A stretch of DNA of 64,000 nucleotides from Perkinsus olseni (taxonomy: Eukaryota > Perkinsozoa > Perkinsida > Perkinsidae), in contig JABANP010000177.1 in NCBI GenBank assembly GCA_013115135.1, positions 1 to 64,000 of the forward strand, written 5' to 3'. Below the pieces are notes generated by a model. The model did not search any database, was not told the DNA's origin, and saw nothing but the letters and a program-made list of their open reading frames with translations. Every line of letters starts with the position of its first letter. Positions within the stretch are counted from its first letter, which is position 1. The position numbers and the translations under genes were made by a program. Positions 6,840 through 62,405 of the stretch are shown here, piece after piece.

Positions 6840-9800
6840 TCCCAGTTGAACGATACCCACCACCATCATGGCGTCCTTTGCCTTTACCCTTGCCTTTGCC
6901 CTTCCCTTTACCACCCCTGCAACACACACATACTCGCCCGAGCTGCTAACATCATCATCTCACCCTTCATGATCGAAGTCATCGCGATCCCTACTCCGGC
7001 TTCTACTCCTCCGTCGTACAACAGCCGAGGCGCCTACCAGGGAAAACATCCCCTCACCACCGTCACCATTGCGCCGCTTACCCGACTCCACATGTGGCCG
7101 AGACAAAGCATTCCTGTATCCCTGCACTGGACGGCAGTACCCCTTTCCACTAGTAGCCGACACGCTGGCCTGATGACGACAACCGTCCCTTGCAGAGACC
7201 GATCGAGCTGCTGCTCTCTTCTCACCTTGTCGCGCCGTCGCTGGTTGTAGATATCCAAGGCGTTCATGCCCTCATAAGCAGCATCGTCGAAGTTGCCAGC
7301 AGTCTTTCGATGGGTGAGGTCCACCGCCTGGCAACAGCAATCGAAAGCTCTCGCGAAAAATATGTTCCAACACTACCTTGCTGTCATCCTTTCGGCCCTC
7401 ACCGCCTTCAGCCCACGTCCCGCTATCACGACCGTCATTCCAACTGAGTATGATAAAGACGAGGCTATTCGACGGACGGGGCACTCTTAGGAAAGAAGCA
7501 TCACAGAGTTTTATCGCAGGAGTGCTGTTACTCCATTCATAACAGCAGAAATGTGAGGCAGCCCCTCCCGAAACCAACTTCAGAAGGAGTTAAGTAGAAG
7601 CAGTACAGAACGGAGCCACAAGACGCTCTCGATATCTAACGAGCGTCGACCTCAAGATACCACCGGTATCTCGATATCTAACAAGCGTCGACCTCAAGAT
7701 ACCACCGGTATCTCGATATCTAACAAGCGTCGACCTCAAGATACCACCGGTATCTCGATATCTAACAAGCGTCGACCTCAAGATACCACCGGTATCTCGA
7801 TATCTAACAAGCGTCGACCTCAAGATACCACCGGTATCTCGATATCTAACAAGCGTCGACCTCAAGATACCACCGGTATCTCGATATCTAACAAGCGTCG
7901 ACCTCAAGATACCACTGGTATCTCGATATCTAACAAGCGTCGACCTCAAGATACCACTGGTATTACCTCTGTCCCTGTCCTCCTCCAGCCGGCGCATCAT
8001 ACCAGCTCTCCTCACCGCCGCCATACCATCTGAAACCACCAAATACCCCTCTCTCAACACGACTACATCCTACTCGCTGTCGTCCCAACTTTCCCCTTCC
8101 CCCGACTTGAGTACGACCATGCCCAGCGGGATCTCCTCGATGGACCTGGACAGCTTTATCGTGGGCTCGCGAGTACTCGGAGGCGATGCAAGAATCCTCT
8201 ATTTCATATACCGCTAGAACCGAGTAAGGACAGCTCTCGCGAGGGTCAAAAATACCCTCATCCAGAAAAAAGCATAATCAACACCACTGGCTCATCATTC
8301 TTATAATCAACGATCGTTCCCAGACTGCAATGCTTCACAGCAGAGCGACAAGAAATCCTCCATCATTACTACCCGTCCTCCAGCCTGCACTTAACTCGCA
8401 CTCGATTGGTAGTCGGCCCAAGCACATCAACGACCTCGCCATCGAGCCAGTCACCATTGGAGCATGCTTCAATCTGCAGACCCGCTATATTCCCGCGCGC
8501 CACGAAATTCATCACCTTGGCCTTAGAATGGAACTTGTCCAACACTGTCTTGTTCTGCTTCTGTCGCTCCCGAAACTGGAACTTTTCAAAGTCCAGCAGC
8601 TTCACGCAGTACCTGCATCGACCCCTATGGCAGCGTCACTCGGTTAGAGAGTGAAGCATTACTCTGTTTTGATGGCCTGGGGTATTCTAGGCAATACTAC
8701 ACTGTAATAACGATCTTCCGTCAGGAGCTGATCAAGACAAAGACAGTTACGGTTCGCGTATCGATTGGCAAGTCGCTGCTCCAAGAAAAGAAAAATTTCG
8801 CGAACCTCTCCCTTTTCATCTTCTTCGGGTGAGCAGAGACATGTCAAAATTCTTGATACTATTCCCGTAAACCCTCGTCGGCAGCAGCTGGAAACAAGGC
8901 TGTAGCATAGTCTTTCATCGACGAGCAACCCGCGCAGGTAATACTCCCATCAATTCAAGCATACCTTCTCCACGTATTCCCCCATGGTCATGACTCGCCC
9001 TTTATCACAGCCAGGAGTGAACTCTTCGTCGTCCTGAATAAAGTCCAAATAGGATTCGAACTCGATACCTCCCGCATGAGAGCATCCCACTCTACCGTCC
9101 TACCAGAAGATGTGGTTGCAAGAAGCTCCAGTAATCTCGAGGCGACAGACCAAACCGCACATACAGGAAGCCGGCGCACCTGCAGTTAACATGAATCCTT
9201 CCCTGTGCGTACCAAAGATTCCTCCTTACCTAACGTAAGGTGCTCCATGGTAGTTGATGAGCTGACCTAGTATCTTGCTGTTAATGCGCATCACGAAGAG
9301 GCGATACAAACAGCAGAACATCGTCGAAGGTACGGTATGAGAGCTGAGGGAAATAGCGGTGCAGAGAGATGCTGCTTCCAACCAATACTAAACCACGCAT
9401 ACGCACAGAAGGACGCTCGGCAGTGACGAGGACATTGACAACTTTCATTTTTCGTTCTTCCCAAATGATGATTTACTATGCACGCTCTTTACAATAAACT
9501 CAATTGTGTGAAAATGAACCCCAACTCAATTGCGAAAAACGCGTCCGGGACGAGACATCTCCAGAGGCGAATTGCAAAGGTAACTTCTACAACATTGCGA
9601 GTTTCGACGTAAAATTTTCATCATTAGGGATACATGAGGAGGTACGACTGTTCAGGAGGGGTCCGCAACCGGGGTGAATGACAGAGTATGTACTCTTTAT
9701 TGCACAGACAGTGTCCGCACGAGTGACAACACATTAGTATTACCCAGGGGCGTAAGGCTCAGCATCCTTGCATCTGGTCTTGATCTCATCAATTATCGCT

Positions 9801-14113: not shown

Positions 14114-14330
14114 ACGAGAATGTTGAGTTCAACGTTGGTATCTAAGGTTGAAGCTGGGGGTACACAGATCGTGAGCTGTGTCAGTTTTTTGCTGCTGTTA
14201 ATGTATAATAGCGGTCGTGGCGGAGCGATGACGGCTGCTGCAGAAACATCGATTGCATCACCGAAGAGTGTATCTTCTACCGGCGAGCCGCCCCTACCAG
14301 GGAGAGCCGATCTGGACAGGTAGTGGTCGA
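14114..14330 (+). promoter_or_regulatory. Duplicated 5' leader of PP2A copy 1, with 67-codon uORF
   Basis: This block is almost identical to 17,274-17,480 and lies immediately upstream of the first PP2A catalytic gene. It holds an open frame of 67 codons (14,120-14,323) that differs from its twin by one residue (Thr for Ser). It cannot be joined in frame to the PP2A start through any clear splice pair, so it is most likely untranslated leader, promoter or upstream ORF. Its near-identity may simply reflect recent duplication. Confidence 0.5.
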
Positions 14331-14353
14331 CACCGCAGGGCTGGGATACTCGA

Positions 14354-16353
14354 ATGGTTGATGATGAGCTCCGCAGGTACATCGCTAGCCTTCAAGACTG
14401 TCAGGCTCTGGCTGAGGAGGAACTGGCCGGTAGGTGGCCCCAGCGCTTGTTGATCGAATTGGAAATTTCTAGGTCTGATAACGAGAGCGAGGGAAATACT
14501 GCAAAAAGAAGATAACGTGAAGCCAGTGCGGTGCCCGGTGACGGTCGTTGGGGACATTCATGGTCAATTCTACGATCTAATGGAAATGTTTAGAATCGGG
14601 GGCTGTACTATGAGGGACGTTTTCTCGCAAGTCGAACGCTCTTTGCTCATGCAGTTCCTCCGGACACCAACTACCTGTTCCTCGGGGACTACGTTGACAG
14701 AGGCTACTTCAGCGTTGAGGTTATAAGTCTCCTACTGGCGTACAAAGTGAGGAGCATCGTATCAACTTGACCAATTTTGTATCTTCCCTGGTTGAAGGTT
14801 AGATACCCTGAGCGGATCACGATCCTTCGAGGCAATCATGAGTCTCGGCAGCTCACGCAAGTGTATGGATTCTACGATGAATGCTTGCGAAAATATAATA
14901 CAGCGAATGTCTGGAAGATGCTGACTGATGTAGACCAAAGAAACGGACGATGCATCGTGTAACGCATCCCTCCTCAGTTGTTTGACTATCTTCCCCTCAC
15001 AGCGTTGGTGGAGAACTCTATCTTCTCTATGCATGGTGGTCTGTCGCCGTCAATCGATGACATAGATGATGTCAGGAAAATTGATAGACTTCAAGAAACG
15101 CCACATGAAGGTGAGAGAGGGTTCGTAGGCTGTGGGAAGGTATTAATGCATCATCTTCTATTGGCTGTGGCCGCCACTCGCCACTTCTATTGGCGAGATC
15201 TCGGCATCGGAATGTACGGCAGGTGCAATGTGTGACCTCCTTTGGTCGGATCCTGATGATCGTAGTGGCTGGGGTATATCACCGAGGGGCTCTGGCTATA
15301 CTTTCGGAGAGGATATATCAGCTCAGGTGAGTCGCTAATAGTGCTTGACGGGCTTCGCTCCGCTGTGCTCGAGACGCGACACTTCTCCTATGGAATACAC
15401 GGCTCGGCTGTTGGGCACGGGCAGTCATAATGGACCCAGTATTAGGGGCAAATCATTGCTCAGCTGAGCGCATCAGATTACACACAGGCTGTCGTTGGCG
15501 AGCGAACTACACTCTGATGTCTTCGTCTCCGCGACTTCCCGTGCAACCTCGCATGCACACTTTTCTCTGTGTGTTGTGGTCTATGGCACCTGATACATCA
15601 GAATGGCACAACAGTGCTGATGAGTATCGCGAGGAATTCGCTTTTGGACGTACACTTCCTGCCGTTGATTCCCCTCAATGATCTTGCTCGTCATCGCCTT
15701 CAGTTCAATCATCATAACGGTCTCAAACTGATCGCTAGAGCCCACCAGCTCATTATGGAAGGCTACAACTGGAGCCACGAGAAAAACCTCGTGACGATAT
15801 TCTCAGCACCGAACTACTGCTACAGGTGGGCTAGTATTGTTATTCTCGGACTACGGCTTGAGGGGTATCTTTGATAGGTGTGGTAACCAGGCAGCTGTTA
15901 TGGAACTCGATGAGAACATGAGGTAGGGGAGAGAGCGATGATTCCTATTTCGGCTGTGCGTTATGGAAGATCGTGTTTTGAAGCCTCGGGGTCGTAGTAG
16001 AGTAGTGGTAGTAGTTTTTGGGTCGATAAAGAGGCGTCCTCTCACAACTTCTTTAACGCCACTGTTACCCCCAGTTCTGCTGAGACAACCGACAAAGCGA
16101 GGCCACTATCATCTACTATCGGTAGACTATCGCTATGTATTAAACTACATATTATCATCTATGTCGTTATAGCGATTATCGTTGATCTATGAGTAGTGGT
16201 GGTAGTAGCAGCATGTGCCATGCTGCATGCTAGATGTCGCCTTCGTCTATCTGCCCGAATGCTCTCGCTAGGTACACCTTCCTACAGTTCGATGCAGCTC
16301 CGCAACGCAGAGACCCGACGATCGTACGGGAACTCCCTGACTACTTCCTCTAG
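14354..16353 (+). CDS. PP2A catalytic subunit, tandem copy 1
   Basis: This is a serine/threonine phosphatase of the PPP family, closest to the PP2A catalytic subunit, which works with scaffold and regulatory subunits. Ordered blocks are visible: [146 protein letters not shown], and a final exon ending [12 protein letters not shown]. All metal-binding motifs (GDIHG, GDYVDRG, GNHE) and the PP2A-specific C-terminal DYFL are intact. About eight short GT-AG introns are inferred, all in the same phases as copy 2. The upstream ATG used by copy 2 is lost through a 4-nt deletion, so the start taken is 14,354. One usual Pro (HEGPMCD) is Ala here. Confidence 0.9.
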
Positions 16354-16417
16354 TCACTGTAAGACCTATTGGTTATATTATCGCCTTTTTTTCTGGAGTA
16401 AAATAGATGGAATCTTT

Positions 16418-16515
16418 TGCTGTGTGTAGACTATCATATTTCAAGAATTATTGATGGGTTGGGGTGTCAATCTCACAGGGATGTAGGTCGTCGTCATTTG
16501 ACGGTAAGTAGGTGG
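16418..16515 (+). repeat. PP2A 3'-flank repeat, copy A
   Basis: This segment just past the first PP2A stop contains tttgctgtgtgtaga, then a TTG-GTCAAT-TCACAGGGA block and gtcgtcgtcatttgacgg. It recurs after the second PP2A stop (19,437-19,556) and again on its own at 20,737-20,855. It is probably 3' UTR or terminator sequence copied with the gene. Confidence 0.7.
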
Positions 16516-16540
16516 CATCAGTATTGGGTGATCTAGGTTT

Positions 16541-17088
16541 GTGATTCTGGTGATTCGGTTCGGTTGGTCCCATGCAGGCTCAACGGTCGAGCACAAGAAG
16601 AGGGTAGCCGCCAAGGCGACATCTTCATACCTTGGGGCGCTTGCTTCGACAGCAAGCACAGGCCAGCACATGAGGATTCGGATCAACACCAATTCGCTGA
16701 TGCGAGCAAACCCAGTGAGTGATCGATGGCGTCGCTTAGGACTCTGAGCTTGAGGCCAAGTCCGGCTAGTCCGTGGTGCAGTTGTGGAATATTTTCAGAG
16801 TCCAGCAGTGAAGCCACCAGCCTTGGAATTATCGCTCAGTTCGCACTCCATTGCTGAGATGGCTGGCATCGGTTGTTATCCTGTAATATATGGCTGCCGC
16901 CGCCCTGTAGTTTCCAACTACTCAGAGAATGCGCGATGATGGTCGGGGAGAAATATACCTGCAGAAGCGGCAAGACTCGAGAGAAAGCCATTCTTAAGAA
17001 TTTAATTCAGAGCTGCAGCGTCGGTGGTATACTCGAAGCTCTAACGGGGTTTCCGTACAACCCTGATGATGAAAATATATCGCTGTAG
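16541..17088 (+). CDS. Small unrecognised spliced gene
   Basis: Three candidate exons lie between the PP2A copies. The first contains HKKRVAAKATSSYLGALAST and HMRIRINTNSLMRANP and ends at a gtgagt donor (about 16,715). The second encodes VKPPALELSLSSHSIAEMAG (about 16,805-16,880). The third encodes KTREKAILKNLIQSCSVGG and ends ENISL-stop at 17,088. Each junction has plausible GT and AG ends. No domain is recognised. The gene has no second copy after PP2A copy 2, so the duplication unit did not include all of it. Confidence 0.4.
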
Positions 17089-17273
17089 TTGGCCAGCTTT
17101 CGCGTCAAAAACGAGAACGCAACGATGATATTTGCCAATACTTTTGGCAATAAATTAGGAAGCTAACTGTAGCGGTTGAAGGAAGGTCAGCGGTGAGTAA
17201 GCTTGAAGTTTCAAATCACGGAAATCTTGAGCAAACGCTCCTTGGCCTCAACCAGCTGTTGTGATTCCACGAC

Positions 17274-17480
17274 GAGAATGTTGAGTTCAACGTTGGTATC
17301 TAAGGTTGAAGCTGGGGGTTCACAGATCGTGAGCTGTGTCAGTTTTTTGCTGCTGTTAATGTATAATAGCGGTCGTGGTGGAGCGATGACGGCTGCTGCA
17401 GAAACATCGATTGCATCACCGAAAAGTGTATCTTCTACCGGCGAGCCGCCCCTACCAGGGAGAGCCGATCTGGACAGGTA
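17274..17480 (+). promoter_or_regulatory. Duplicated 5' leader of PP2A copy 2, with uORF
   Basis: This is the twin of 14,114-14,330, differing at only a few bases. The 67-codon upstream frame is preserved and ends just before the PP2A start. Confidence 0.5.
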
Positions 17481-17482
17481 GT

Positions 17483-19374
<1,892 letters not shown>

Positions 19375-19436
19375 TTGATGTGAGGCCCCCTAGCGGGTGC
19401 ATCATCAGCCGTTTCTTTCGAGTAAAATATATGAAG

Positions 19437-19556
19437 GCTTCTACTGTGTGTAGATTGTTATATTTCACGAAACGATGACGAGTTGGCTTGTCAATATCAC
19501 AGGGACCGTCCGTCAGGGACGTAAGTCGTCGTCAGGCGACGATAAGTGGGAGCATC
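19437..19556 (+). repeat. PP2A 3'-flank repeat, copy B
   Basis: This copy follows the second PP2A stop. It shares ttatatttcacgaaacgatg, gagttggcttgtcaatatca and gtcaggcgacgataagtggg with 20,737-20,855. Confidence 0.8.
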
Positions 19557-28500: not shown

Positions 28501-28699
28501 TTAATGGCAGCCATTCAAATGTGCCTGAGTTTTATTAGTTCTGATAGAAATATATAGTTCTTGCAGATATTGGCGCCAAGAGAAAAGCTCGCACGTTCTA
28601 CAGCTTCTCAACATAACTTTTGGCATTTGCCAAACATTTGTGCTCTGTTTGCTTGTACCGGTGCGGCATCTGCACTGTCTACATAACACAATGGAGCTG

Positions 28700-29600
28700 T
28701 GCTCATACTAGCTCCGCATTATCACACCATTCTCTCAACTATTCCACTTACTATGTGCTCTATCTCGATCACTATGAGCCCAATTACTAATGTTGTGTTC
28801 TACAACTACACCTACTGCAACGAGATAGTGCTCATCAATCCATGAAAATATCTGATATAATATAGAAATAATCCACAAAATGTCAGTGATATTTTGTGCA
28901 GGCATTGGGCCAATGCTATTGGCTATAACGAAGTGCCCTGCTGCAGAGCACTCTTGCTAACCGGGCAGCATTGCTCATCGGTGCTGCCAGGCTCTGACAG
29001 CCAACCTCTGTCTCTGAGATATGGAGGATCTCCACTCGACAGTCCCAAACTCCGCCTGAGTCGAGGTATGGCCCACACTGAGTCTAGGCCCCTGAATCTT
29101 GAATAGTACAAAAATAGGCATGTCAAGGTTGAGGTTAATAGTGTCAATCTTGGGCCCGACATACTATGAGTGTGACATTCTTGAATTCTCATTGACAAAC
29201 TTGCATCCACAGATATCACATTTGGCATTCTTGGATTATCATTGTCATTCTTTGGATTCAACAATGTCGCTCTTGTCTGCTCACGTGTCAAACTTGCACG
29301 GGAAATGGTGTATATCCTCGCAGTAAGGTAGAGTGACCGGAGAGTAATTCAAGGAATGCCCCATTGTTCCTGCGAGAAACTGCCGATCTAATACATCTCC
29401 TCTGCCCAGAACTCTGCAATGCCCTCTGCAAACCGTCGGATAAGGTTGGCACCATGGCAACTATGACGTAGTCCCTGATTCTCTCAAGCTGCTGCGTTGG
29501 GACGAGGCGGGTCCTGTAGGCGACGATGACATTTGCGTGTTGGATCGAGATAAACGAATCCAAACTTGAGCAAAGATGGCAACGTAATATATTTTAGTTC
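28700..29600. other. Intergenic with degenerate short tandem repeat
   Basis: No gene is recognised. Around 29,150-29,265 a degenerate unit of about 22-35 bp of the form cattcttggattatcattg is repeated three times. An 8-bp inverted repeat with a 9-nt loop (cacaaaat...attttgtg) lies at about 28,875-28,899, beside the 3' end of an AT-rich tract. Confidence 0.5.
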
Positions 29601-36089: not shown

Positions 36090-37182
36090 CAGGGTGGCCG
36101 GTGGAAAGAAAAATAGACATTCTTTCCTTCGGCCTATTTTTCCTGCTGAAAAATAGGGAAAAATAGGGAAAATAGGCAAAATAGAAAATTTTTCGCTAAG
36201 GAGCGATTCGCGAGCAAGGGGAATGGATCCAATAGGTTTGACCGGCCTTCCACACTTCCTGGTGAACACTGCAGGGGGCCGGTCTTGAGGAGCTCTGCTT
36301 AAGAGGTGAACTGTAAGCGTTCCTTCACTCTCCGCGGTCACTTGGACTCTGCAGTCACTGAAACGCAACATGGAGATTCTCCATTGGAGGAGTAATCATG
36401 AGGCATAGGGCTTCAAGAATTATGAATTTAGTATACTTTTTCAACGTGGAATCATCGGTGGCACTCATATTGAGTGACTCGACGAAAGGGAACCATCTGT
36501 ACCGGATGAGCTGCTGAATACGCGCTCGTGAGAATCACTTCTCACAGCGGTCCCGTGAAACCTCCTTATGGTTGTCCAGCGGAGGAAGGCGTCTCTAAAT
36601 ATATTATTCGTTGACAGGTTATCCCTTAGGAAAGCTTGAGCACTGCTGCTGAGACAATCACAACTACTACAAACTTGGCAGGTTTACCTGGCCACAAATT
36701 TTGTACAACTGAAGAAACGCTCTTGTGCAGCCGTCCCGCAGGGAGTTTGTGTGGCAAGGTATAGATAACTTTAAGTTCCACACTCGTCTTTCACACTCCA
36801 GTGAAGTGACTCCACCAGTAGGAGCAAGGGCCGCACGTTTCTCTCTTTTCCGTGAGCTTCGAGCTTTGATGGACACTCCTGCGCGCCTAAGATCCAACGA
36901 CGAGATCCATCGATTCCGTCGTTACGAGGGTTTAAATCTCCCGAATGTTTCAGTTATATTTCTGTCAGAACTACGGCACATCTCTATGCCTCTAATCATT
37001 GATTAGTGATCAACCACATCTCGCTCTTCCTTTTTCGCTTTTTTCTTGAGTTTTTCTCTCTTTTTCCCCAATTTTTTCCAAAATTTCCATTTTTCTATTT
37101 TTCCGGGGAAAAATAGGCATTCTTTCCTTCAGGAAAAATAGCCTTTCTTTCTGAAGGAAAGAATGAAAGAACGGCCACCCTG
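36090..37182. mobile_element. Non-autonomous hAT-like DNA transposon, complete
   Basis: The 1,093-bp element has terminal inverted repeats beginning CAGGGTGGCCG and ending CGGCCACCCTG, followed inward by gaaagaaaaatag / attctttccttca-type subterminal repeats. It is bounded by a perfect 8-bp target duplication, CACTCAGG (36,082-36,089 and 37,183-37,190). An 8-bp duplication and a CAGGG-type terminus are hallmarks of the hAT superfamily. Inside are only small frames (for example 36,725-37,006, 93 codons) with no transposase motif, so it must rely on an enzyme supplied elsewhere. Two related loci (45.7 kb and 38.2 kb) lack it, giving natural empty sites. A fragment of the same family lies at 28,311-28,500. 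Confidence 0.9.
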
Positions 37183-37190
37183 CACTCAGG

Positions 37191-37989: not shown

Positions 37990-40450
37990 CAGGCTGCGCG
38001 GCCGCACAGAGCGCCACAGCGGTCGAGAGCTCACGCCCTGTGTGTGCATTATAGTGACAACTGCAACTACACCCATTGCTGATACGTACCCACTTCGCCC
38101 TTTGTGCGCTTTTGCTCATTATACGTACGTTCGTCCCAAGCTTCGAAAGGGATGCCAGTGAACTGAAGTCGTGAGGTTGCGCTAACACGATACGCGATGA
38201 TAAGATGATAGCTCTTTTTCGGCTTCGAGTGCCTGACGCTGTATTGGAGGAAACCTGTTCATAACACGAAGGGTCAGCTTTGAAGTTGCGTTGTGAGTGA
38301 TTCAGTACATTAAGACTCCTATTTTTGGAGACTGAGCAGAAGAGAACGATATCAGGTGATGCACACAATGTCCAGCTTTTTCGAGCATCGCGGAGAGCTG
38401 AAATAGTTTGAGAAGTGTGATGCATATGAACTGCGGACACCAGCCCTGAACTAAGTGCATGACCCAAGTGTGCTTCCCTTGGAATAGCTCCCTCATGGAC
38501 CGTGAGTCACGGTAACCCCAGCATCACAATAATATGATGGAAGGTATGATACCTTCCATCACCTTCCATACCTTAGGTATCGAACCTGGAGCTCCCAGGT
38601 GGTTCCAGGACCCACCATTCTGAGAGGTCCTCTCGTGGAATGCTGTAACTTGCGAACCGCAAGCGCAAGCTCCCATAGGACGGCCTAGTGACTGCGAGAA
38701 TCAGATCACACTGTCACTGTCTCACTGTTATTGTCATGGTTAGAGTTATAATAACTCAGTACCCCGACTCAACCATCTTAGCAGGATGTGGACGTTCTGC
38801 GCCTCGGACACGGTAACCATGCGAAGTAGCCGTAGTCATTTGACGGGCAGGAGCCTAACAATAAATACAGGCTCATAGTAAAAGCATCATGCATCAGGCT
38901 CATCGTGCGCATCCTACAATGACCCAACGGTGATAGCAGCATCATAGCCAACGCCCCCGAGTTACCGCCATGAACACAGCGGTAACACTTGAAGGTAACA
39001 AAGGCAAGACGGTTGCGGAGATAGGCGCCGGCTATTAAGCGCCGCCTAATAGACGGGACGGGGAGCCTTACTAACACTCTGGTGATACAAAGAATTCATA
39101 AGGGCATTCCCCTCGAGTCCTGTTGAGAATAGGGCGCTGTTAACCCTCCCGCAGCCCCGTTGGGAACCTTCTACAATGCAGCCTCGGTAGTAGAGCTCTG
39201 GAGATAAAACACACTGTGAGTTAAAGATTATTCCGGAAGACAGCGTCAGCCGATGCAATCAAAGACGGGGCAACAGTCGAGCTGCTGTATGGACTGCCAC
39301 GTGCTCTCGAGATTTCCAGGGCATAGTAAATAAGCGCCTCTACCAGATGTGGACCAAGAGCTGACAAAGGAGTCATTATGAATGCCCATACCGCCTGTGA
39401 TCGGCTTACAATGAGAGTCAATGGCTTCGCTGACAACCTAACGGTTAAGTCTTAACCCATTCCGCCGCAAGAGTCCCTTCCGGGGCTATTTTCTCTATAA
39501 GTTTACCCGTGAGTGGGCTACAACGACGGTTCGGGTACCTTTCCTCATACTCATCTCGGGCAAATTGCTTCCAGCGTTCTAGCTCTTTCGTTCGAGCACG
39601 TAGTCTCTCGGCATCTGCTAGGCAATATTTTTGAACAACATGATGAAAATACGATGAAAATATCCTAAGCAGATCCTAAGCGAGCCACTTGCGAGAAAGT
39701 TGATCGTTCAGAAACGGAATATCGAGAAATGAGACATCCACATTTCTGTTGCTTCTGTCCACCATTCACAGCCTCCAGACTATCATCGTCCTTACGGTGC
39801 CGTTGATCTCTTCTCCTCTTGTCCTCCCGCCAGTCAAGATTCTCATCAGCATGAGACAAGCCAACCAGTGACATTCTGTCAGTAAACAACTATCATGACT
39901 CATGATTCATGAGTGCATAAAGCGTCAATCAAATGAGACAATCAATGAGGCAATCAATGAGGCAATCATAATCGTTACAATCATGTGGACAAGTTTCTCT
40001 TCATGAACGTCTTCCTGAGAGCCGCTTTTTAAGAGCGATTGAGAAAAGGCACTCAGTCCTCTTGCTGGAAGAGTCTTGCAGCTTGAGGTGCGACAATGTT
40101 ACCGCTGTTGCTGCGACAACGAACGGTAGATGGCGAGTCATTCATAACTCCACCAGCTTCTCTAGTTCAGTTCTGGTTCAGTCTTCGAACTCTCCATCTG
40201 ATCTTGAGAACCAGACGGAACATCATCGGATTGTCTCGGCTCGGGCCTAAAGGCTTCAGGGCCAGGCCCTGAGGGCCTAAAGCTTAGGCTAGAGCGTAGA
40301 CCGATTTGAGTGGTCCACGAAGCCGCTATCTACTGAACGCTGTTAGCCTGGATTGAATCCAGGATCATCCAAGCTGAGTATATCTTCGATCTTCAACTCT
40401 TCCACTACTTCTTGACGAAGTCTTCGTCCGCTGAGGCCTTCGTTCCGGGC
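37990..40450 (-). repeat. Inverted duplication, left arm (minus-oriented gene copy)
   Basis: The reverse complement aligns block by block with 43,440-45,730. Protein-level similarity is retained in frame: the minus strand reads DKRRRDQRHRKDDDSLEA and NGGQKQQKCGCLI (39,740-39,830), MTPLSALGPHLVEALIYYAL (about 39,315-39,375), and LIAGAYLRNRLAFVTFKCYR with CVHGGNSGALAMMLLSPLGH (38,920-39,040). The last frame is open from 39,077 to 38,778. These frames match the plus-strand arm, so an unrecognised spliced gene was duplicated. The largest open frame is 37,913-38,467 (184 codons). The arm carries several palindromic insertions missing from the other arm. Confidence 0.75.
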
Positions 40451-40799
40451 CACCTACAGAGCGGCTGCCGCTCAGCGGCACATACCACACCAGGTGTGGC
40501 ACACCTTCCCTTACTCCTTGTGACGTATTCATTACGGCAACGAGATCGCTGCTCTGTTGGCATCATCATTCAACCGGCGCTTTATCACATTTAGGAAAGT
40601 TACCCGATCCCGCTTCATCATTATCCTGCTATCATTCCCTAGTTATAAGGCCTCATAGCAATTTTGCCTCAAGATCTTAGACTCGCGCCAATAGTCACTA
40701 CCCTCCAGCCGGCCGTGACGAATTGGTCCCCCATACTACCTGTATGTCTCCCACACTAACCGCAGCTGCTGCCGATAAAATTTAAAACTTTAGTGTTTA

Positions 40800-42400
40800 T
40801 GCTTCGCTAAGCATTCATTGAATCAAGCTAAGCTTTAGTGACTAAAGCTTAGCTTGGTCTCGGTCCGAGCCTCTCGGACGTTACATTATCACACAAGCAC
40901 TCAGGGCCATACCTCAGCGAGGAGACAAAATATGCTAACATGGTCATGCTATAACTGACGCATCTCTTCAGTACCCTTCTGTCACACTCATCATTCGCGT
41001 TTACCATTCCTTCCCCATGGTAGCGGCACCGCCTGCCATGAGTCGCTCATGATGAGCGGCCTCACGCGCCAAATAGAGGTCTGAATGGTATAAGAAGTAT
41101 ATGCTGGTATATTGGTGTCTCATCAATGATGAGGAAGGATAGCTGCACGCTCACCACGGAACGGAAGCGCGCGGCTTCATCCTTCGTGCTCATCACGTTT
41201 GACAAGGCTCTTTCAAGTTGAAGGCTTGAATGTACTTGTGCACTTCAGGCAAAGCATTTGGCTGAAGCGTCAAAAGAAAGAATATCCAGTCTGTCGTTTT
41301 TTGAAAGAGAAGGCCGCACTGCGGAAGGTGATTGACCGATCCCTTCTCACACTCTTCTGACATTGATATTTGGCGCTTATTATAATATGTAAAGGAAACC
41401 GCGGCTCGCAAGACAGCTGTCTCTGCGTAGCCAAAGTAAACCGACCGGAACCGCATCGGCATCAGGTACTCTTAGATGTCATCTAGTAGATGAGCAATGC
41501 CGATGAGAAATGATGAGCTTGCCGATGAGATACGCTCCAAGGCTACGGGAAGTGATAAAATAATTGGAGCAATTTTCTCCGAGCAAAAGGAAGCCGAGCT
41601 GCTTGAGCCGCTCGAGCCGCTTGATCGTCGATTGTACGTGTCAAGTCACCACGAACGCCTTTCTCGGCATGTGGACCACATGATGTGGTCAGGAACAAAT
41701 GGCTCGCTAGGCAGATGAGCAGGACAGGGCTGAGGGAGCCAAAATGCGCGAGAGTCTCGTGGCGAGACAATAACAGAAGAACTTCGACTCCGTCTGGTGA
41801 CAAGATTACACAGTTACGACGACAGAAACTCTTAGAAACCCCCAGCTCGGCAGAGTAGAGTTCAGCCGCTGGCCTCGGGTAGTATCTTCTGCGGAATTAT
41901 TCCGCCAGAATATTATCGGAACAATAGGAGATCCCACTAGCTGCTACTGCTAGTGACTAGCAGGCTGATATGGCTACCTTCCTGGCTTGCATTTAATGCA
42001 ATTTAGCTAATGTAAGCTAGTCTGCTACAGTATCCAAAGGAAAGGATAATTTCATAAGGATTTCCTAGAACGAGGTAATGGTGTATCTCGGTCGACGATT
42101 TGGACATATTCATTTTATGTCGTATGTTTTTGTACTACAAACTTTGTAGTTTTCAAGTTGAAGAGAAGGGAGTGAGAGACTCTCCATTCTCGAAAGAAGC
42201 GTTTTAAGACTGCTTGTGAGAATAACGATGCGGCTGAGGAACAAGATTGCTACGCAAGTGAGTCCGAATCTGACAGTCCGACGCACTTACCCTGGGAGAA
42301 AATCAGCTGTACGATTCAGCTCGACGCTTAGCTGAGTCTTAGGTAGACGGCACGGAAGCTGGCAACGTATCAAAGCATTATGAGGTTGCTATAGGAGGAG
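40800..42400 (+). pseudogene. Decayed coiled-coil gene copy
   Basis: The stretch aligns with the 3' part of coiled-coil paralogue 1. 40,970-41,040 matches 24,400-24,480; 41,240-41,430 matches 25,205-25,400, including the exon block ending ggccgcactgcggaag|gtga; 41,500-41,840 matches 25,720-25,975; and 42,030-42,250 matches the fragment at 27,660-28,280. Exon sequence is interrupted by stops and deletions, and the exon reading TVARKTAE in paralogue 1 breaks off after a few codons. It lies between the two inverted arms. Confidence 0.6.
40824..40856. repeat. Perfect palindrome 16+1+16
   Basis: Arm caagctaagctttagt, centre g. It lies at the left edge of the decayed coiled-coil copy. The equivalent place in paralogue 1 (about 24,245-24,275) has a different, shorter inverted repeat. 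Confidence 0.97.
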
Positions 42401-42569
42401 CCAATTGAGAATTTCTCGGAGCCACGATCAATCGCTCCAAAAGACTGATCAGCAAGGAAAGAAGGTAAACCTGCATCTGTGTTCGCATGATTCTTGGTCC
42501 ACCAGTGGTGGCCACTGGGCACTCTTCCCATTCCGATTTGGCATAGGCTAGTGTCTCGGCGATGTCTCC

Positions 42570-43440
42570 ACAAGCATGAATGAGTTCTCTCAAGTCTGTA
42601 ATAGTTCATGCGACATGCTGTACACTTCAGTTGCGTACCTCAAGGGCATTCATCACGACTGCGAACGGAAGATACAAGAACGGGGAACTAGGGACTACTT
42701 TATGAAGAGCCTACTCGCCGGCAGTGAATTACTGTGCAATCAGTACAAGCTCATTTATAATGTCACAGACTTGAAATACCCCTGGGGTATTACCCCAGAT
42801 GATGAGTGAGGGGTGCGTACTACGCACTGCGTAGGCTGCTCATGAATCATAAGCTAGGAGTTATGACCTAGACCGGCTGTTTTTGGACACAATGTATCCG
42901 ATACACAGCTTCTCGCCGTTTGCCTGCTGGGCCTTCTGGGTTATCAATAGGAAATGCGTCGATTAGCGAAGTACTGAAATTTCGGACACGTTTCGACAGG
43001 AAGCCTTCTGAATTACAGCGGGTTTACCAGGGGGAGGATTCGATGAAATACACGGATATGCTCGAATGGGAGATAGATCGCTGTGCTGCGGAGAAAGAGA
43101 GGCCAGAGGAGCGATATTCTAGAGACTTGAAAGTGAGGTGGGAGTCAGTTCAGAAGGTCTGCCTCAACGGGTCAACTTGGCATCGGAGTTTGCCATTCTG
43201 AGTTTTGCCTATTCTGCTTCTTATTCGGCGCCGATATGAGACCTTTCACGTCGAAGCACCGCGAATATAAACTTTGTCAGCGATGCAAGAAGAGATTTAA
43301 TAATAACTTTGGAGAGGTCCTTCAACTCCTTCAGCAAGATCTAAGGTGGATACCGAACCCGGGAGCCTCCCAAGGCCTTGGACAAAAAATAGAAGAGTTG
43401 GAGCTGGCCGCTCTTTTGGTAAGTCGACTCGGTGAACTTG
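42570..43440 (+). pseudogene. Coiled-coil gene exons, fragmentary
   Basis: Exon-like pieces include LKGIHHDCERKIQERGTRDY (about 42,640), YTDMLEWEIDRCAAEKERPE (about 43,050, resembling the exon near 21,020), a basic piece CQRCKKRFNNNFGEVLQLLQ (about 43,275) and GQKIEELELAALL (about 43,380). A palindrome-bearing intron lies at about 42,780-42,830. It may be the 5' part of a gene that continues into the right inverted arm. Completeness cannot be judged. Confidence 0.4.
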
Positions 43441-45730
43441 ATCGGCGAAGCGTTCATATCGGAGATATATGCAGCTTGGATCCAGGCTAACAGCGTTTAG
43501 TAGATGGCGGTTTTCGGACCACTCAAATCGGTCTACGCTTTAGGCCGAGCCAAGAGAAGATGTTCCGGCCGGCCCTCAAGATCAGATCGAAGAATGCCTC
43601 GCCATCTACCGCTTGTTGTCGCAGCAACAGCCGCGGCATTGTCATACATCCGCCGCGGCAATCATTGCCGGACAATGTCGCTAGAAGAGAACTGAGTTCC
43701 GTGACGGAACTTCCGTCCCTCAATCGGTCTTCGGAAGACGTTCGCGAAGAATTTTTTCCAAGCAGGGTTGGTGGGACTGATCACTTAGGGGACGTGTGTT
43801 CGTAATTGTAAAGCCTCACGTTCAGTCATCCTGTCATCATGACCACTACTAGTGGCCCACTTACTTCCTCGCTAGCGACGTCTGCTACTGCTCATTCGCC
43901 GCATTTCCAGGTTAAAGAGGTTCATCGCTCTCTAGGAGGGCTTATGGCTGAGAAGTTGAAACTGCGGCTACGTCTGGGATTGCTGGCGTAGAACTGAACT
44001 CCTCATTCGATTCGTCGCTTGATGCATCCAAGATGGTTTTCCCTGACAGAATGGGATTGGCTGGCTTGTCTGAGGCAGAAGAGAATGACTGGCTTGAAAT
44101 CGACTGGCGGAAGGACAAGAGGAGAAGAGATCAACGGCGCCGTAAGGACGATGAAAGTCTGGAGGCGGCGAATGGTGGACAGAAACAACAGGAATGCGGA
44201 TGTCTCATTCCTCAATATTTCCGCGAAGCGTCGTTTCTAGGCGAATTAACCTCCTTGCAAGTGGCTCGCTCAGGATCTGCTTGGAATATTCTCATCGAAG
44301 TTGTTCCCAGAACCGTAATCGTAGCCCACTCACGGGTAAACTTATAGGGAAAGTAGCCCAAGGGACTGCTGCGGCGGAATGGATCAAGTTGTCAGCGAAG
44401 TTATTGATTCTCACTGTAAGGCTCAGGCTTAAAGCCAATCACAGGCGGCATGTTCATTCATAATGACCCCTTTGTCCGCTCTTGATCCACAGCTGGTAGA
44501 GGCGCTTATTTATCATGCCCTGGAGATTTCGAGCGCATCCGGCAGCTCGAGAGTTGCTCCGCCTTCGCTTTCATCGGGAGAGGTGCCGAGCATCGGCTGC
44601 TGTCCTCCCGGCTAACCTTTCACCTACAGTGTATTCTCATTTCTGAGTTCTACTACCGAAATTGCATTGTAGAAGGTTCCCAACGAGGCTGCGGAAGGAT
44701 TAACGGCGCCTAATAGCCGGCGCCAATCTCCGCAACCGTCTTGCGTTTTTTACCTTCAAGTGTTACCACTGTGTTCATGGCGGTAACTCGGGGGCGTTGG
44801 CTGTAATGCTACTATCACCGTTGGGTCATTGTAGAATGCGCACGATGAGCCTGATGGGTGATTCCTCATCCATGAGCCTGTATTGTTAGCCTTCTGCCTG
44901 TCAAATGGCTACAGTTACTACGCATGGTTACCGGGCCCGAGGCGCAGACCTTTCATATTCTGCTAAGACGGTCAAGTCGGATGATACAAGAGCCGCCGTT
45001 TAGTTCTGCGGTGATGATGTAGCTCAATGAGTTTCAGTCTGCATGTACACAATGACGACGAAGACAGAGGGGTGCCTAGCGTTACACTATCATAGTCCGA
45101 CTATTTAACTTGGGAGAAAGTTACATAGACACTTAACAATGATGTTTAGATATCTGAAATGTTTTGGCGTCGGGGGGTTTAGGAGTAATTCTATTCATGA
45201 CAATGCCACGAACAGCGTGATCTGATCGGGATCCTCGTACTTACTAGGCCGTCCTAACAGAGCTTGCCCTTGCGGTTGGAGAGTTGCAGTAGTCCATGAG
45301 AGGCCCACTCAGAGAGGTGGGTCCTGGAACCACCTTAGGATCCCAGGTTCGGTCCCCTCCATCACATTGCGTATTGTGATGCTGGATTTACCGTGTGGTA
45401 GCTACTCCAGAGGAAACAAACTTCGATCATGCACTTTTTTCAGGGCTGATGTCCGCATATTATGTACATCACGGTTCTCATACTATTTCATCTCTCCACG
45501 ATGCTCAAAAAGCTTGACATTGACAAGTGTGTACCCCCTGAGATCGCTCTTGTGTTCAGTCTCGTAATTTACTGAGCCAGTCGCCCGCAACTTTAGAGTT
45601 ATTACCCTCCGTGTTACGAACAGGTTCTCTCCTAATACAGCGTCGGGCACTAGAAGCCGAAAAAGAGCTGCCATCGTGTCATCATGGCGTTTTAGCGCAA
45701 GCTCACGACTTCAGTTCACTGGCCTCCCTT
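43440..45730 (+). repeat. Inverted duplication, right arm (plus-oriented gene copy)
   Basis: This is the plus-strand partner of 37,990-40,450. Matching frames read DRMGLAGLSEAEEN, DKRRRDQRRRKDDESLEA, NGGQKQQECGCLI (44,040-44,215), MTPLSALDPQLVEALIYHAL (44,464-44,525), and LIAGANLRNRLAFFTFKCYH with GNSGALAVMLLSPLGHCRMR (about 44,713-44,845; the first frame starts after a stop). The longest frame is 44,033-44,347 (104 codons), and a stop after MTPLSAL-type sequence differs between arms. The protein family is not recognised. Acidic/basic composition near DKRRRDQR suggests a nuclear or structural role, but this is a guess. Confidence 0.7.
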
Positions 45731-52283: not shown

Positions 52284-53141
52284 ATGACTCCGGAGGACAT
52301 ACAAGGTCTACAGCAGCTGCTCACGGAGGAGTTTCCCATCGAACAGCAACACAGATGTGTTCATGGGCTTGTGAAACGAAAGAGGATGTCCGAGCAAGAA
52401 GCGCTGGCAGTTCACCGAGAGTGAGCGTTCTTGCATCATGCAGGTTGCATGCCGTCGCCGACGTTGTTATTCTAGTGATGGTGTTGTTTCTGTTTCTGTT
52501 GTTCTTGTTGATGCCGTTGCTGTTGCTTCGAGGGCCTGTCAGACCCTTCAGTGTTTGTGATATCATACATCAGTTACGAGAAGGGTTTATGCTTGTTACG
52601 GTCGAGGGAGGGGCTTAGAAGATTGGCTGGTTGTAACTCAACTGGCGTCAGGTTTTATAGGCGGCAGCAAACTCCCGCTACTTGCGGGGTTACGTCGGTG
52701 GCGATGGTCTTGGCGTCGATGAGCGGGAAGATTCTGAGCGATGAGGAGATGCTGCAGGTGGAATTCTTTGCGGTACGCAAAGATACCATCCTGAAAGAGG
52801 GACTAACGCTAGCTCAATTGTGCGATAGTTGCCGTATGATGGGATGGGACACAGCCATTGTGAGACCGCAAAGTGCAGCAGAGTTGGAGCGCCTCTTTGC
52901 GCACAGCAAAGATTTTTTTATTCTGAATTATGATATGGCGGAGGCCGGGCAAGTCCCTTGGGGAGGACACTTCGCTCCGGTAGGTGGGTATCATAAGGAG
53001 ACAGCGAGTGTGTTGCTGCTGGATCCATGGCCATATACTGAGCCTGTGTGGATTGGTCTACAGAAGATACTCACCTCTATGCAGGGTGTCGACAGGAAGT
53101 CGGGGGAAGCGAGAGGCATACTGAGGATTACCATGTCATGA
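52284..53141 (+). CDS. Phytochelatin-synthase-like peptidase (C83 family)
   Basis: Family C83 enzymes are gamma-glutamylcysteine dipeptidyl transferases or peptidases that act on glutathione; the plant enzymes make metal-binding phytochelatins. The exon 52,590-53,141 contains the whole catalytic core: RRQQTPATCGVTSVAMVLA with the nucleophile Cys, GGHFAPVGGYH with the catalytic His, and VLLLDPWPYTEPVWI with the catalytic Asp. TLAQLCDSCRMMGWD and FFILNYDM are also family-like. The protein ends soon after the core, like the short cyanobacterial type, and lacks the Cys-rich C-terminal half of plant enzymes. An upstream exon from ATG 52,284 (TPEDIQGLQQLLTEEFPIEQ onward), ending at a gtgagc donor near 52,421, is probably the N-terminus, but that join is not certain. 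A start inside 52,551-52,600 is the alternative. Confidence 0.85.
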
Positions 53142-59970: not shown

Positions 59971-60196
59971 TGCATAGGAATTTGTTAGTAGCAGTCTGCA
60001 TCCGGATGTATAATTCATCATGAAGAGGGTTAGTTACTTTCAGTTACTGGTGACCCAGGAGATAGTTTAGAGTGTATGCCGCGTTTTTATCGAGTCGTTG
60101 AACATTTGCAAGTCATTAGGACTGAGTATGAGGAGCAGATGCAAGTTTCTCTAACCCTAAGATATTGTGTGCCTGTGCAGCTGTAATGAAAGGGAG

Positions 60197-60267
60197 GGCT
60201 GTGCCGAGAATTGAACTCGGGACCTCTCGCACCCTAAGCGAGAATCATACCACTAGACCACACAGCC
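60197..60267 (-). tRNA. tRNA-Pro (anticodon AGG)
   Basis: Read on the minus strand, a complete 71-nt cloverleaf forms. The 7-bp acceptor stem (ggctgtg / cacagcc) is perfect. The D arm contains gtctagtggtatgat, which also carries the A box. The anticodon stem ctcgc/gcgag closes the 7-nt loop ttagggt with anticodon AGG, U33 and G37 as expected for proline. The variable loop is short, and the T arm ccgag-ttcaatt-ctcgg is perfect and carries the B box. CCA is not encoded. No intron is present. Confidence 0.97.
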
Positions 60268-60967: not shown

Positions 60968-62405
60968 ATGAGCAGTACCCTTGAGACTCCTGCTGCTTCC
61001 CTTGTAGTAGACGCTGCTAAGGATTATCAGCAAAGATTCGGATCGAAGCCAACAGCCTTTGGCGCTGCTCCAGGTAGGGTTAGCGTGGAGTGTTGAAGTC
61101 TGTTGTTACCATCGTTCCTGCCGTATCAGGTCGTATTGAGATCCTCGGTAACCATACCGACTATAATGAGGGTTTTGTCTTATCGGCTGCCATTGATCGT
61201 TACACTGTCGTTGTCGGTGCCAAGTCCCCGGACAACAAGGTGCGCCTTCACAGCAGTGCGTTCAAGAATGTGGTAGAGTTTGATCTCGATGATGATACCA
61301 AATATGAGGGAGAGAACTCCTGGGCTAACTACTCCAAGGGCGTCATCGTTGAGCTGAGAAAGGCGGGTTACGAGGTCCCTGCCTTCCAGGCTTGTATCTA
61401 CTCTAATGTCCCCGTTGGTAGGCATTATTGTTCACTGAAGTGTTGGAAATGTGGTTCTATTATCAGGTGCTGGTGTGTCCTCCTCCGCTGCCATCGAGCT
61501 CGCTACTGCCAACCTTATTCGAGAGTTGGACGGCCCCGATAGCAAGTTGTACAAGGCCAAGCTACTCGATGTCGTTTTGGCTTGCAAGAGTGCCGAGTAA
61601 GTATCACAACTGGCGAGAAGCCGTCTCCTATTGTTGCCATTCCAGGAACAATTTTGTCGGCATGGGATGCGGTATCCTGGATCAGTACACCTCTGCCTTC
61701 GGCAAGAGCGGTCAGCTGGTCCACCTGGATTGCCGTGATAACAGCTGTGATTACGTCCCTCTGCAGGGTAAGCGTGATGCTGTGATGGTCTCTATTAGAT
61801 TATCTCCTCTCAGATGATGTCCGCTTTGTCCTGTGCAACACCCATGCCCCCCACCAACTTGTGGACGGTAAATACAACGAGCTGAGGAAGTGCTGCTTCG
61901 GTGCTGCCAAGGCCCTTGGCGTGCCCTTCCTGAGGGATATCGATGCCAAGACTTATGATGAGAAGAAGTCAGTTTTGTCTGAGGATGATAGGAAGAGAGC
62001 CAATCACATTATTGGTAGGCCTGATGGGAGGGAGGGCCGCAAGCCTACTGTGTACCTTCAGGTGAGAATACTCGTGTCGCCGAGGCTATGGATGCTATCT
62101 CGAAGAAAGACATGAAGAGATTCGGTCAGCTCATGAATGACTCTCACGTTTCCAGTCGGGACGATTTCGGCAACTCTTGCAAGGAGCTTGATATCATGTT
62201 CGACCAAGCCCAGAGCTGTCCTGGATTCCTGGGCGCTCGACTGATGGGAGGTGGCTTCGGTGGCTGCACTATCAATCTTGTTGAAGCCGACAAGGTGGAC
62301 GACTTCTGTAAGGAGGTCGCTGAGAAGTACGAGAAGGCTAGTGGTATCAAGTGCGACACCATTGCCGTGGCCCCTGGAGATGGCGCTCATGGTGACAAGC
62401 TATGA
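60968..62405 (+). CDS. galK/GAL1-like: Galactokinase
   Basis: Galactokinase phosphorylates galactose at C1 with ATP in the Leloir pathway and belongs to the GHMP kinases. The ATG at 60,968 begins MSSTLETPAASLVVDAAKDY. The galactokinase signature GRIEILGNHTDYNEGFVL follows across intron 1 (61,134 onward), then DDDTKYEGENSWANYSKGVI, the GHMP ATP-binding motif GAGVSSSAAIELATANL (61,467 onward), NNFVGMGCGILDQYTSAFGK with the catalytic Asp, LCNTHAPHQLVDGKYNELRK, and near the C-terminus GARLMGGGFGGCTINLVEAD. The stop is TGA at 62,403-62,405. Six exons and five short GT-AG introns keep frame throughout. The product is about 380 residues, normal for the family, and no essential motif is missing. Confidence 0.95.

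What the first reader, a model, noticed from the sequence alone, without database searches (positions are those of the whole stretch)
40256..43711. Palindromes are new insertions: inverted arms differ by locally templated inverted copies
The two inverted arms act as a natural before/after pair. At 40,347-40,363 the left arm has 15 extra bases relative to 43,478-43,493, and 8 of these are the inverted copy of the neighbouring cctggatt. The same holds at 40,256-40,272 (about 40 extra bases against 43,545), 38,536-38,575 (about 35 extra against 45,348), and 39,898-39,914 (about 12 extra against 44,033). In the opposite direction, 43,640-43,672 and 43,695-43,711 in the right arm are missing from 40,100 and 40,050. 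Most large differences between the arms are palindromic insertions, and the inserted sequence matches its own flank. Inference: a fold-back or strand-switch replication event writes an inverted copy of adjacent DNA. This would be a mutational engine for palindromes.
Basis: partly seen in the sequence, partly recalled or inferred. Interest (0 to 1): 0.9.

Follow-up and report, generated by a model that had tools for sequence, protein, structure and literature searches.

The report
Fixed-size scars left by departed transposons
The short palindromes are new insertions of one fixed 14-base design that look like healed cuts left where a hAT-type jumping gene moved out of the DNA, and this protist genome seems to hold thousands of them.

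Summary
Many palindromes here are halves of one 22-bp motif: an 8-bp word T becomes T1-T7 + reverse complement of T + T2-T8, net +14 bp. The window has 48 sites at 12 or more of 14 pairings, 0 in four shuffles; word lengths 7 and 9 give 3 each. Twenty 10-kb samples of the 61.5-Mb genome hold 70, about 21,500 genome-wide (11,000-33,000). Homologous copies lacking the motif mostly show an intact T; third copies show insertion, not loss, at several sites. The fixed 8 bp, 1-base centres and nTnnnnAn preference match hAT transposons, which are present, duplicate 8 bp and inserted recently. Best reading: hAT excision scars. Flank hairpins open, overhangs from the two target copies are complementary, anneal and are filled in. 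New: uniformity (of insert lengths 1-24 only 8 is enriched) and number. Not shown: one locus caught with the element before and the scar after.

The parts
38147..40402 (-). left inverted arm (old duplication)
43447..45730 (+). right inverted arm (old duplication)
38492..38513 (.). 22-bp scar motif, 13/14; a 14-bp gap in the right arm
39436..39457 (.). 22-bp scar motif, 13/14; a 14-bp gap in the right arm
39892..39913 (.). 22-bp scar motif, 14/14; 14 bp (8+6) missing in the right arm
40257..40278 (.). 22-bp scar motif, 14/14, inside a 42-bp difference between the arms
40407..40428 (.). 22-bp scar motif, 13/14
40459..40480 (.). 22-bp scar motif, 14/14
40485..40506 (.). 22-bp scar motif, 14/14
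41037..41058 (.). 22-bp scar motif, 13/14 (present in C86 too)
41472..41493 (.). 22-bp scar motif, 13/14
41668..41689 (.). 22-bp scar motif, 14/14; 14 bp (7+7) missing in C86
41747..41768 (.). 22-bp scar motif, 12/14; a 14-bp gap in the paralogue at about 25.9 kb
41891..41912 (.). 22-bp scar motif, 13/14
42128..42149 (.). 22-bp scar motif, 13/14; 14 bp missing in C86
42776..42797 (.). 22-bp scar motif, 14/14; a 17-bp gap in C86
42813..42834 (.). 22-bp scar motif, 14/14; C86 has a further 14-bp insertion at this place
43656..43677 (.). 22-bp scar motif, 13/14, right arm
43696..43717 (.). 22-bp scar motif, 14/14; 14 bp (8+6) missing in the left arm
44417..44438 (.). decayed 22-bp scar motif, 11/14; 14 bp missing in the left arm and in C86
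21763..21784 (.). 22-bp scar motif, 14/14 (T = ACCCGAAT); shared with C26, C86 has the bare 8-bp T
36090..37182 (.). non-autonomous hAT-like element with terminal inverted repeats CAGGGTGGCC.., family of related copies in the genome
36082..36089 (.). 8-bp target-site duplication CACTCAGG, left
37183..37190 (.). 8-bp target-site duplication CACTCAGG, right

Best explanation
Each 22-bp motif is the healed scar of a hAT-type transposon that left. (1) The element inserted and duplicated an 8-bp target T on both sides. (2) On excision the transposase nicked each flank 1 nt outside the element and closed the flanks into hairpins, reading T1..T7 T8' T7'..T1' on the left and the mirror form on the right. 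(3) The hairpins were opened well down the stem, leaving 3' overhangs. (4) Because both flanks carry T, the overhangs T8'..T1' and T1..T8 are complementary; they annealed and the gaps were filled. Product: T1-T7, reverse complement of T, T2-T8; net +14; two 7-1-7 palindromes with centres 7 bp apart. Shown here: the structure, its fixed size, insertion polarity at several sites, the target preference, and recent hAT elements with 8-bp duplications in the same genome. Inferred: the hairpin, opening and annealing steps, and that an element once stood at each site.
For: Fixed 8-bp word with 1-base centres: 48 sites against 0.0 in shuffles, 38 at 13/14 or better against 0 in 200 kb elsewhere, sequence controls 6, 2 and 12 against 177. 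Of insert lengths 1-24 only 8 obeys the hairpin centre rule above chance (93 of 270 against 16.9). nTnnnnAn in T: T at position 2 p=3e-9, A at 7 p=2e-7, the preference described for Hermes (PMC10368747 passages). Hairpins about 1 nt from the element in Kat1 (PMC4763223 passages); Ac/Ds scars centred on the complement of the bordering base (PMC5873905 passages). At least 21 hAT-domain matches, elements with 8-bp duplications, and a hAT-like insertion in C26 where the window has the single 8-bp target TTTGTGAG. Distinct 14-bp events among three copies: 11 of 12 carry the motif; the other copy has T intact 8/8 in 8 of 12.
Against: No locus was found with an element in one copy and a scar at the same T in another (tries gave none). 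The classic short hAT scar is not enriched (insert 2: 5 against 11.4), whereas hAT scars studied elsewhere are varied. The element duplications I could read show the T2/A7 preference only weakly, 7 of 16, p=0.07, and not every hAT has a strong preference (Hydra hATx-6, PMC8721813 passages). Estimated scars (about 21,500) far outnumber the element copies listed, though those lists are lower bounds.
Confidence: 0.85

Rival explanations
1. Replication fold-back or strand switching: a polymerase switches to the opposite strand, copies back a few bases and switches again.
For: The zigzag order forward, inverted, forward is what two strand switches would write. Long palindromes of varied arm length exist. 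Known for quasi-palindromes in yeast (PMC3820800, PMC5677150; listing and abstract starts only).
Against: The inverted run is 8 bp: lengths 7 and 9 give 3 sites each against 48. 1-base centres are too tight for a simple snap-back loop. The 8-bp word has a hAT-like preference.
Confidence: 0.06
2. A hAT-type transposase, perhaps host-adopted, cuts and rejoins 8-bp targets without a full element ever standing there (aborted insertion or programmed cutting); the scar is the same.
For: Scars seem far more numerous than resident elements; one uniform product; a domesticated hAT enzyme that makes hairpin breaks is known (Kat1, PMC4763223 passages).
Against: The two copies of T are most simply supplied by an element's target duplication; ordinary elements are present and recent.
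Confidence: 0.05
3. Another transposon superfamily with 8-bp duplications (Merlin, P) made the scars.
For: Merlin makes 8- or 9-bp duplications and relatives are reported from Perkinsus marinus (PMC8101967 passages).
Against: No PF12762 match in this genome, while the search rang in one of 14 control genomes. The P search was uninformative: nothing rang anywhere. From recalled knowledge neither forms flank hairpins with a 1-nt offset.
Confidence: 0.03
4. Chance, assembly artefact, or a functional hairpin or binding site.
For: None found beyond the presence of palindromes.
Against: Zero in shuffles and few in sequence controls; the 8-mers differ, with only a two-position preference; copies differ by presence and absence at many loci, with the bare T in the other copy.
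Confidence: 0.01

Closest known systems
hAT excision footprints with P-nucleotides (Ac/Ds in plants and yeasts, TcBuster, Hermes/hobo)
   Same: Palindromic insertions centred on the complement of the base that bordered the element; 8-bp target duplication; microhomology at the joints (PMC5873905 and PMC3499496 passages).
   Different: There the scars are mixed: 28 kinds among 128 in Candida, arms of at most 3 nt; in S. cerevisiae arms up to 20 nt and 66 of 140 with arms of 3 nt or more. Here one full-length product, T7 + inverted T8 + T7, dominates and occurs by the thousand.
Quasi-palindrome template-switch mutations
   Same: A locally templated inverted copy appears beside its source.
   Different: Not tied to one length, one centre size or an 8-bp target preference (recalled; abstract starts seen).
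V(D)J coding joints (RAG) and Kat1 mating-type breaks
   Same: A transposase-derived enzyme leaves hairpin-capped ends that give P-nucleotides or hairpin breaks (Kat1 passages; V(D)J recalled).
   Different: No duplicated 8-bp flank that pairs with itself; joints are varied; programmed at one or a few loci.
Introner elements of Amoebophrya
   Same: Small inverted-repeat insertions in a related alveolate lineage (PMC7789003 passages).
   Different: Those are introns with 8-20-nt inverted repeats at their ends and 3-5-nt direct repeats; the scars here are 14 bp and carry no element sequence.

Membership tests
hAT excision footprint | built on an 8-bp duplicated target | tested here: met
   Word length 8 peaks sharply; bare 8-bp T intact in the other copy in 8 of 12 distinct 14-bp events, 7/8 in 3, 5/8 in 1.
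hAT excision footprint | palindromes centred on the complement of the base next to the element (1-nt offset) | tested here: met
   Trim 1 fits at length 8; trims 0 and 2 give 0 sites; centre rule 93 against 16.9.
hAT excision footprint | target preference nTnnnnAn (Hermes type; not universal in hAT) | tested here: met
   165 non-overlapping sites: T at 2 in 76, A at 7 in 70, both in 35 against 10.6 expected.
hAT excision footprint | hAT transposase and elements with 8-bp duplications in the same genome | tested here: met
   21 PF05699 matches; duplications.
hAT excision footprint | an element demonstrably occupied the site before | tested here: inconclusive
   No such locus found in the stretches held.
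hAT excision footprint | mixed scar types including short ones | tested here: not met
   Of insert lengths 1-24 only 8 is enriched. This is a usual property in the systems seen rather than a defining one, and it is why I call it a new variant.
Merlin transposon scars | Merlin-type transposase in the genome | tested here: not met
   0 PF12762 matches at E <= 0.001; the search rang in one of 14 control genomes.
P-element scars | P-type transposase in the genome | tested here: inconclusive
   PF21787 rang neither here nor in any of 14 control genomes.
Replication template-switch (quasi-palindrome) mutation | varied lengths and centres set by local microhomology | tested here: not met
   One length and 1-base centres dominate; the long-palindrome minority is the exception.

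The most novel reading that the evidence does not exclude
This lineage has a hard-wired route for transposase hairpins that opens them deep in the stem and rejoins through the paired target copies, so that hAT activity (or a host-adopted hAT enzyme cutting without an element) acts as a fixed-quantum mutator: +14 bp, one design, more than ten thousand times, and the leading source of mid-size indels in non-coding DNA. Each scar still spells the target of a vanished element, giving a readable map of past transposition.
Probability: 0.3. Interest if true: 0.8.

Novelty: new variant of a known kind. Interest (0 to 1): 0.62.

Why it matters
Cut-and-paste transposons usually leave varied, hard-to-read traces. 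A scar of one fixed design can be found in a bare genome sequence with very few false positives, names the 8-bp target, can be dated by its decay, and counts departures rather than resident copies. That lets one ask directly how often elements moved, how an alveolate opens and joins DNA hairpins, and how much of its indel variation comes from transposase rather than replication error.

Tried and rejected
Chance and composition: rejected with Markov shuffles and with reversed, complemented and direct-copy controls on the same DNA. One shared inserted sequence: rejected, the 8-mers differ. Other word lengths and trims: at trim 1, lengths 5-24 other than 8 give 3-23 sites at thresholds of similar stringency (highest: 23 at length 22, 22 at 18, 19 at 6), and trim 3 gives 15 at length 8 and 29 at length 10; the trim-3 sites share the same pair of centres read with a 3-base loop; I did not dissect the longer lengths. 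Classic short hAT scars: not enriched. Loss rather than gain: several sites are polarised by a third copy; exact reversal by slippage between the 6-bp direct repeats is possible, so polarity is claimed only there. Merlin: no transposase found. P: uninformative. The empty site opposite the window's own hAT element could not be read in C86, the alignment being too poor, and the C86 element at 66,045 lies in a stretch that the window lacks. Pfam scans of eight open frames in and beside the arms found no domain.

Papers: nine searches ran. No paper was read whole; eight were seen as passages (PMC5873905, PMC3499496, PMC10368747, PMC4423477, PMC4763223, PMC7789003, PMC8101967, PMC8721813).

The first length scan stopped with a script error after its trim-0 part and was rerun for trims 1-3.
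Full report
WHAT IS THERE. The window is part of contig C87 of an unnamed assembly of 61.5 Mb in 968 contigs. The genome holds 86 matches to a 21-base pattern for the spliced leader of dinoflagellates and perkinsids, none to the reversed control (pattern recalled). The organism is therefore very probably a perkinsid or similar alveolate; Perkinsus is my guess from genome size and was not tested. The two inverted arms are an old duplication, 86% identical over 1,781 aligned columns.

THE OBSERVATION. Four of six carry the motif below at 13-14 of 14; the best scores at the other two are 9 and 10. Counting inverted repeats by centre size, 1-base centres stand out: arms of 7 or more, 83 against 3.4 expected; arms of 8 or more, 28 against 0.4. 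Other centre sizes from 0 to 20 give 3-14 against 1.8-4.8. Among 114 palindromes with six paired bases per arm, the seventh base pairs in 0.73 and the eighth in 0.31. Eighteen pairs in the list of arms of 7 or more have centres exactly 7 bp apart (counted from the listing).

THE RULE. Two 7-1-7 palindromes 7 bp apart equal one design: an 8-bp word T rewritten as T1-T7, reverse complement of T1-T8, T2-T8. That is 22 bp with 14 internal pairings and a net gain of 14. In the window 48 sites reach 12 of 14 against 0.0 in four Markov shuffles; 18 are perfect. Lengths 7 and 9 give 3 each; at length 8, trims 0 and 2 give 0. Trim 3 gives 15 at length 8 and 29 at length 10; these share the same two centres with a wider loop. 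Some longer lengths also exceed chance, up to 23 sites at length 22, and were not dissected. In 20 stretches of 10 kb from other contigs, 38 sites reach 13 of 14 against 0 in one shuffle, and 70 reach 12. They are uneven: 7 of 20 stretches have none and the richest has 12. The extrapolation is about 21,500 sites, bootstrap range 11,000-33,000; the stretches were picked by contig number, not drawn at random. With the middle reversed, complemented or direct instead of reverse-complemented, 6, 2 and 12 sites reach 12 of 14 on the same 326 kb, against 177.

INSERTION, NOT LOSS. In four paralogue alignments within the window, 36 indels of 8 bp or more have flank identity of at least 0.65; 10 are exactly 14 bp and 10 of those 10 carry the motif at 10/14 or better (null 0.35%); 16 of 36 carry it at any length. 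Contig C86 is a largely syntenic copy of much of window 21-45.8 kb; C26 matches window 21.0-23.0 kb at 98-99% and 23.3-24.35 kb at 84%. Over 17 block comparisons among the three, with block ends chosen by eye from BLAST hits, 34 gaps of 8 bp or more passed the flank filter, 25 with the motif; 18 are exactly 14 bp, 17 with the motif. Several events recur in more than one pair. Counted once, there are 12 distinct 14-bp events, 11 with the motif; the other copy has T intact 8/8 in 8, 7/8 in 3 and 5/8 in 1. Polarised cases: TGGAAGAC scar only in C26, while the window (98% to C26) and the more distant C86 lack it; TACCCGAT scar only in C86, while C26 and the window have bare T; a scar on ACTGGTGC in 1 of 7 copies of a hAT family, the other six lacking the 14 bp, with T exact in three and one substitution away in three; and the 44,417 insertion, absent from the left arm and from C86.

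WHY hAT. The genome has at least 21 hAT dimerisation-domain matches. A blind scan for inverted ends with direct repeats gave three hits at repeat length 8, two of them hAT-like and one a self-similar repeat; lengths 6, 7, 9 and 10 gave 6, 1, 0 and 1 hits, which I did not inspect. One element is in the window at 36,090-37,182. Four of seven aligned family copies show an 8-bp duplication on both sides (CACTCAGG, CTTACCTG, CACAGCGA, GTGGCATT); the other three have lost or altered ends. C26 carries a 0.8-kb element flanked by TTTGTGAG where the window has a single TTTGTGAG, so hAT-like elements moved after these copies split, the interval in which the TGGAAGAC scar also arose. Of seven further elements whose ends I fetched, two gave clean 8-bp duplications (CTGGGAGC, GATAGTTC), one 7 of 8 (C595), one is the same insertion as L006 (C25, GTCCGGAG, 7 of 8), and three gave none (C526, C202, C55). 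In the eight distinct duplications used, T at 2 or A at 7 occurs 7 of 16 times, p 0.07: weak, in the right direction. In the scars the preference is strong: 172 sites, 165 after dropping overlaps, T at 2 in 76, A at 7 in 70, both in 35 against 10.6. Hermes is described with 8-bp nTnnnnAn targets; a Hydra hAT has little preference, so the motif supports hAT without defining it.

MECHANISM. In known hAT chemistry the flanks close into hairpins, for Kat1 mostly 1 nt from the element end, and Ac/Ds scars carry palindromes centred on the complement of the bordering base. Applied to T-element-T, the left flank reads T1..T7 T8' T7'..T1' and the right flank is its mirror. If both hairpins are opened well down the stem, the two 3' overhangs are reverse complements of each other because both come from T. 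Annealing and fill-in give the observed 22 bp whatever the exact opening point, which would explain why one length dominates. This last step is inference. Testing insert lengths 1-24 for the centre rule, only length 8 is enriched (93 of 270 against 16.9); length 2, the classic scar, gives 5 against 11.4. A test of plain direct repeats agrees: offset 14 gives 160 six-base runs, other offsets 5-40 give 37-86.

WHAT DOES NOT FIT. Palindromes with 1-base centres and arms of 12 or more number 16, against 0-1 for ten other centre sizes and 6 for centre size 6; they may be hairpins opened without use of the partner T. I did not catch an element and a scar at the same T. The single-product habit is unusual beside Candida, 28 kinds among 128, and rice, where 8 of 94 excisions of several superfamilies were simple (PMC4423477 passages). 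Merlin, which also duplicates 8 or 9 bp, was not detected; the P-type search was uninformative.

VERDICT. Observation confirmed; interpretation partly right. New, locally templated insertions: yes. Replication fold-back: probably not. It works like, and most likely is, hAT excision scarring of an unusually uniform kind.

Noticed in passing
window 21463, 32527, 38548, 40840; L026:2963; L029:155: Long palindromes with a 1-base centre (arms 13-28) that do not follow the 8-bp rule; 16 with arms of 12 or more in the 327 kb examined.
   Followed up: partly
window 21000-45800 against C86 and C26: C86 is a largely syntenic diverged copy and C26 a partial close copy of the same region: segmental duplication or diverged haplotypes.
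   Followed up: partly
window 28665-28831: A repeat of about 165 bp with dozens of copies at 83-95% identity, on some contigs spaced about 0.83 kb apart; no Rfam match in the window besides the tRNA.
   Followed up: no
window 38042-38138: A short dispersed repeat of about 95 bp with dozens of copies at about 80% identity.
   Followed up: no
window 14114-19505: Tandem gene duplication, 86% identical, with exon-like conserved blocks and 14-bp scars between copies; reads by eye like a protein phosphatase (motif recalled, not searched).
   Followed up: partly
window 7627-7963: Minisatellite with a 42-bp unit, copies over 95% identical.
   Followed up: no
window 52551-53138 and 61090-61539: Open frames matching phytochelatin synthase (PF05023) and a galactokinase signature (PF10509).
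   Followed up: no
window 60196-60267, minus strand: tRNA-Pro with anticodon AGG.
   Followed up: no
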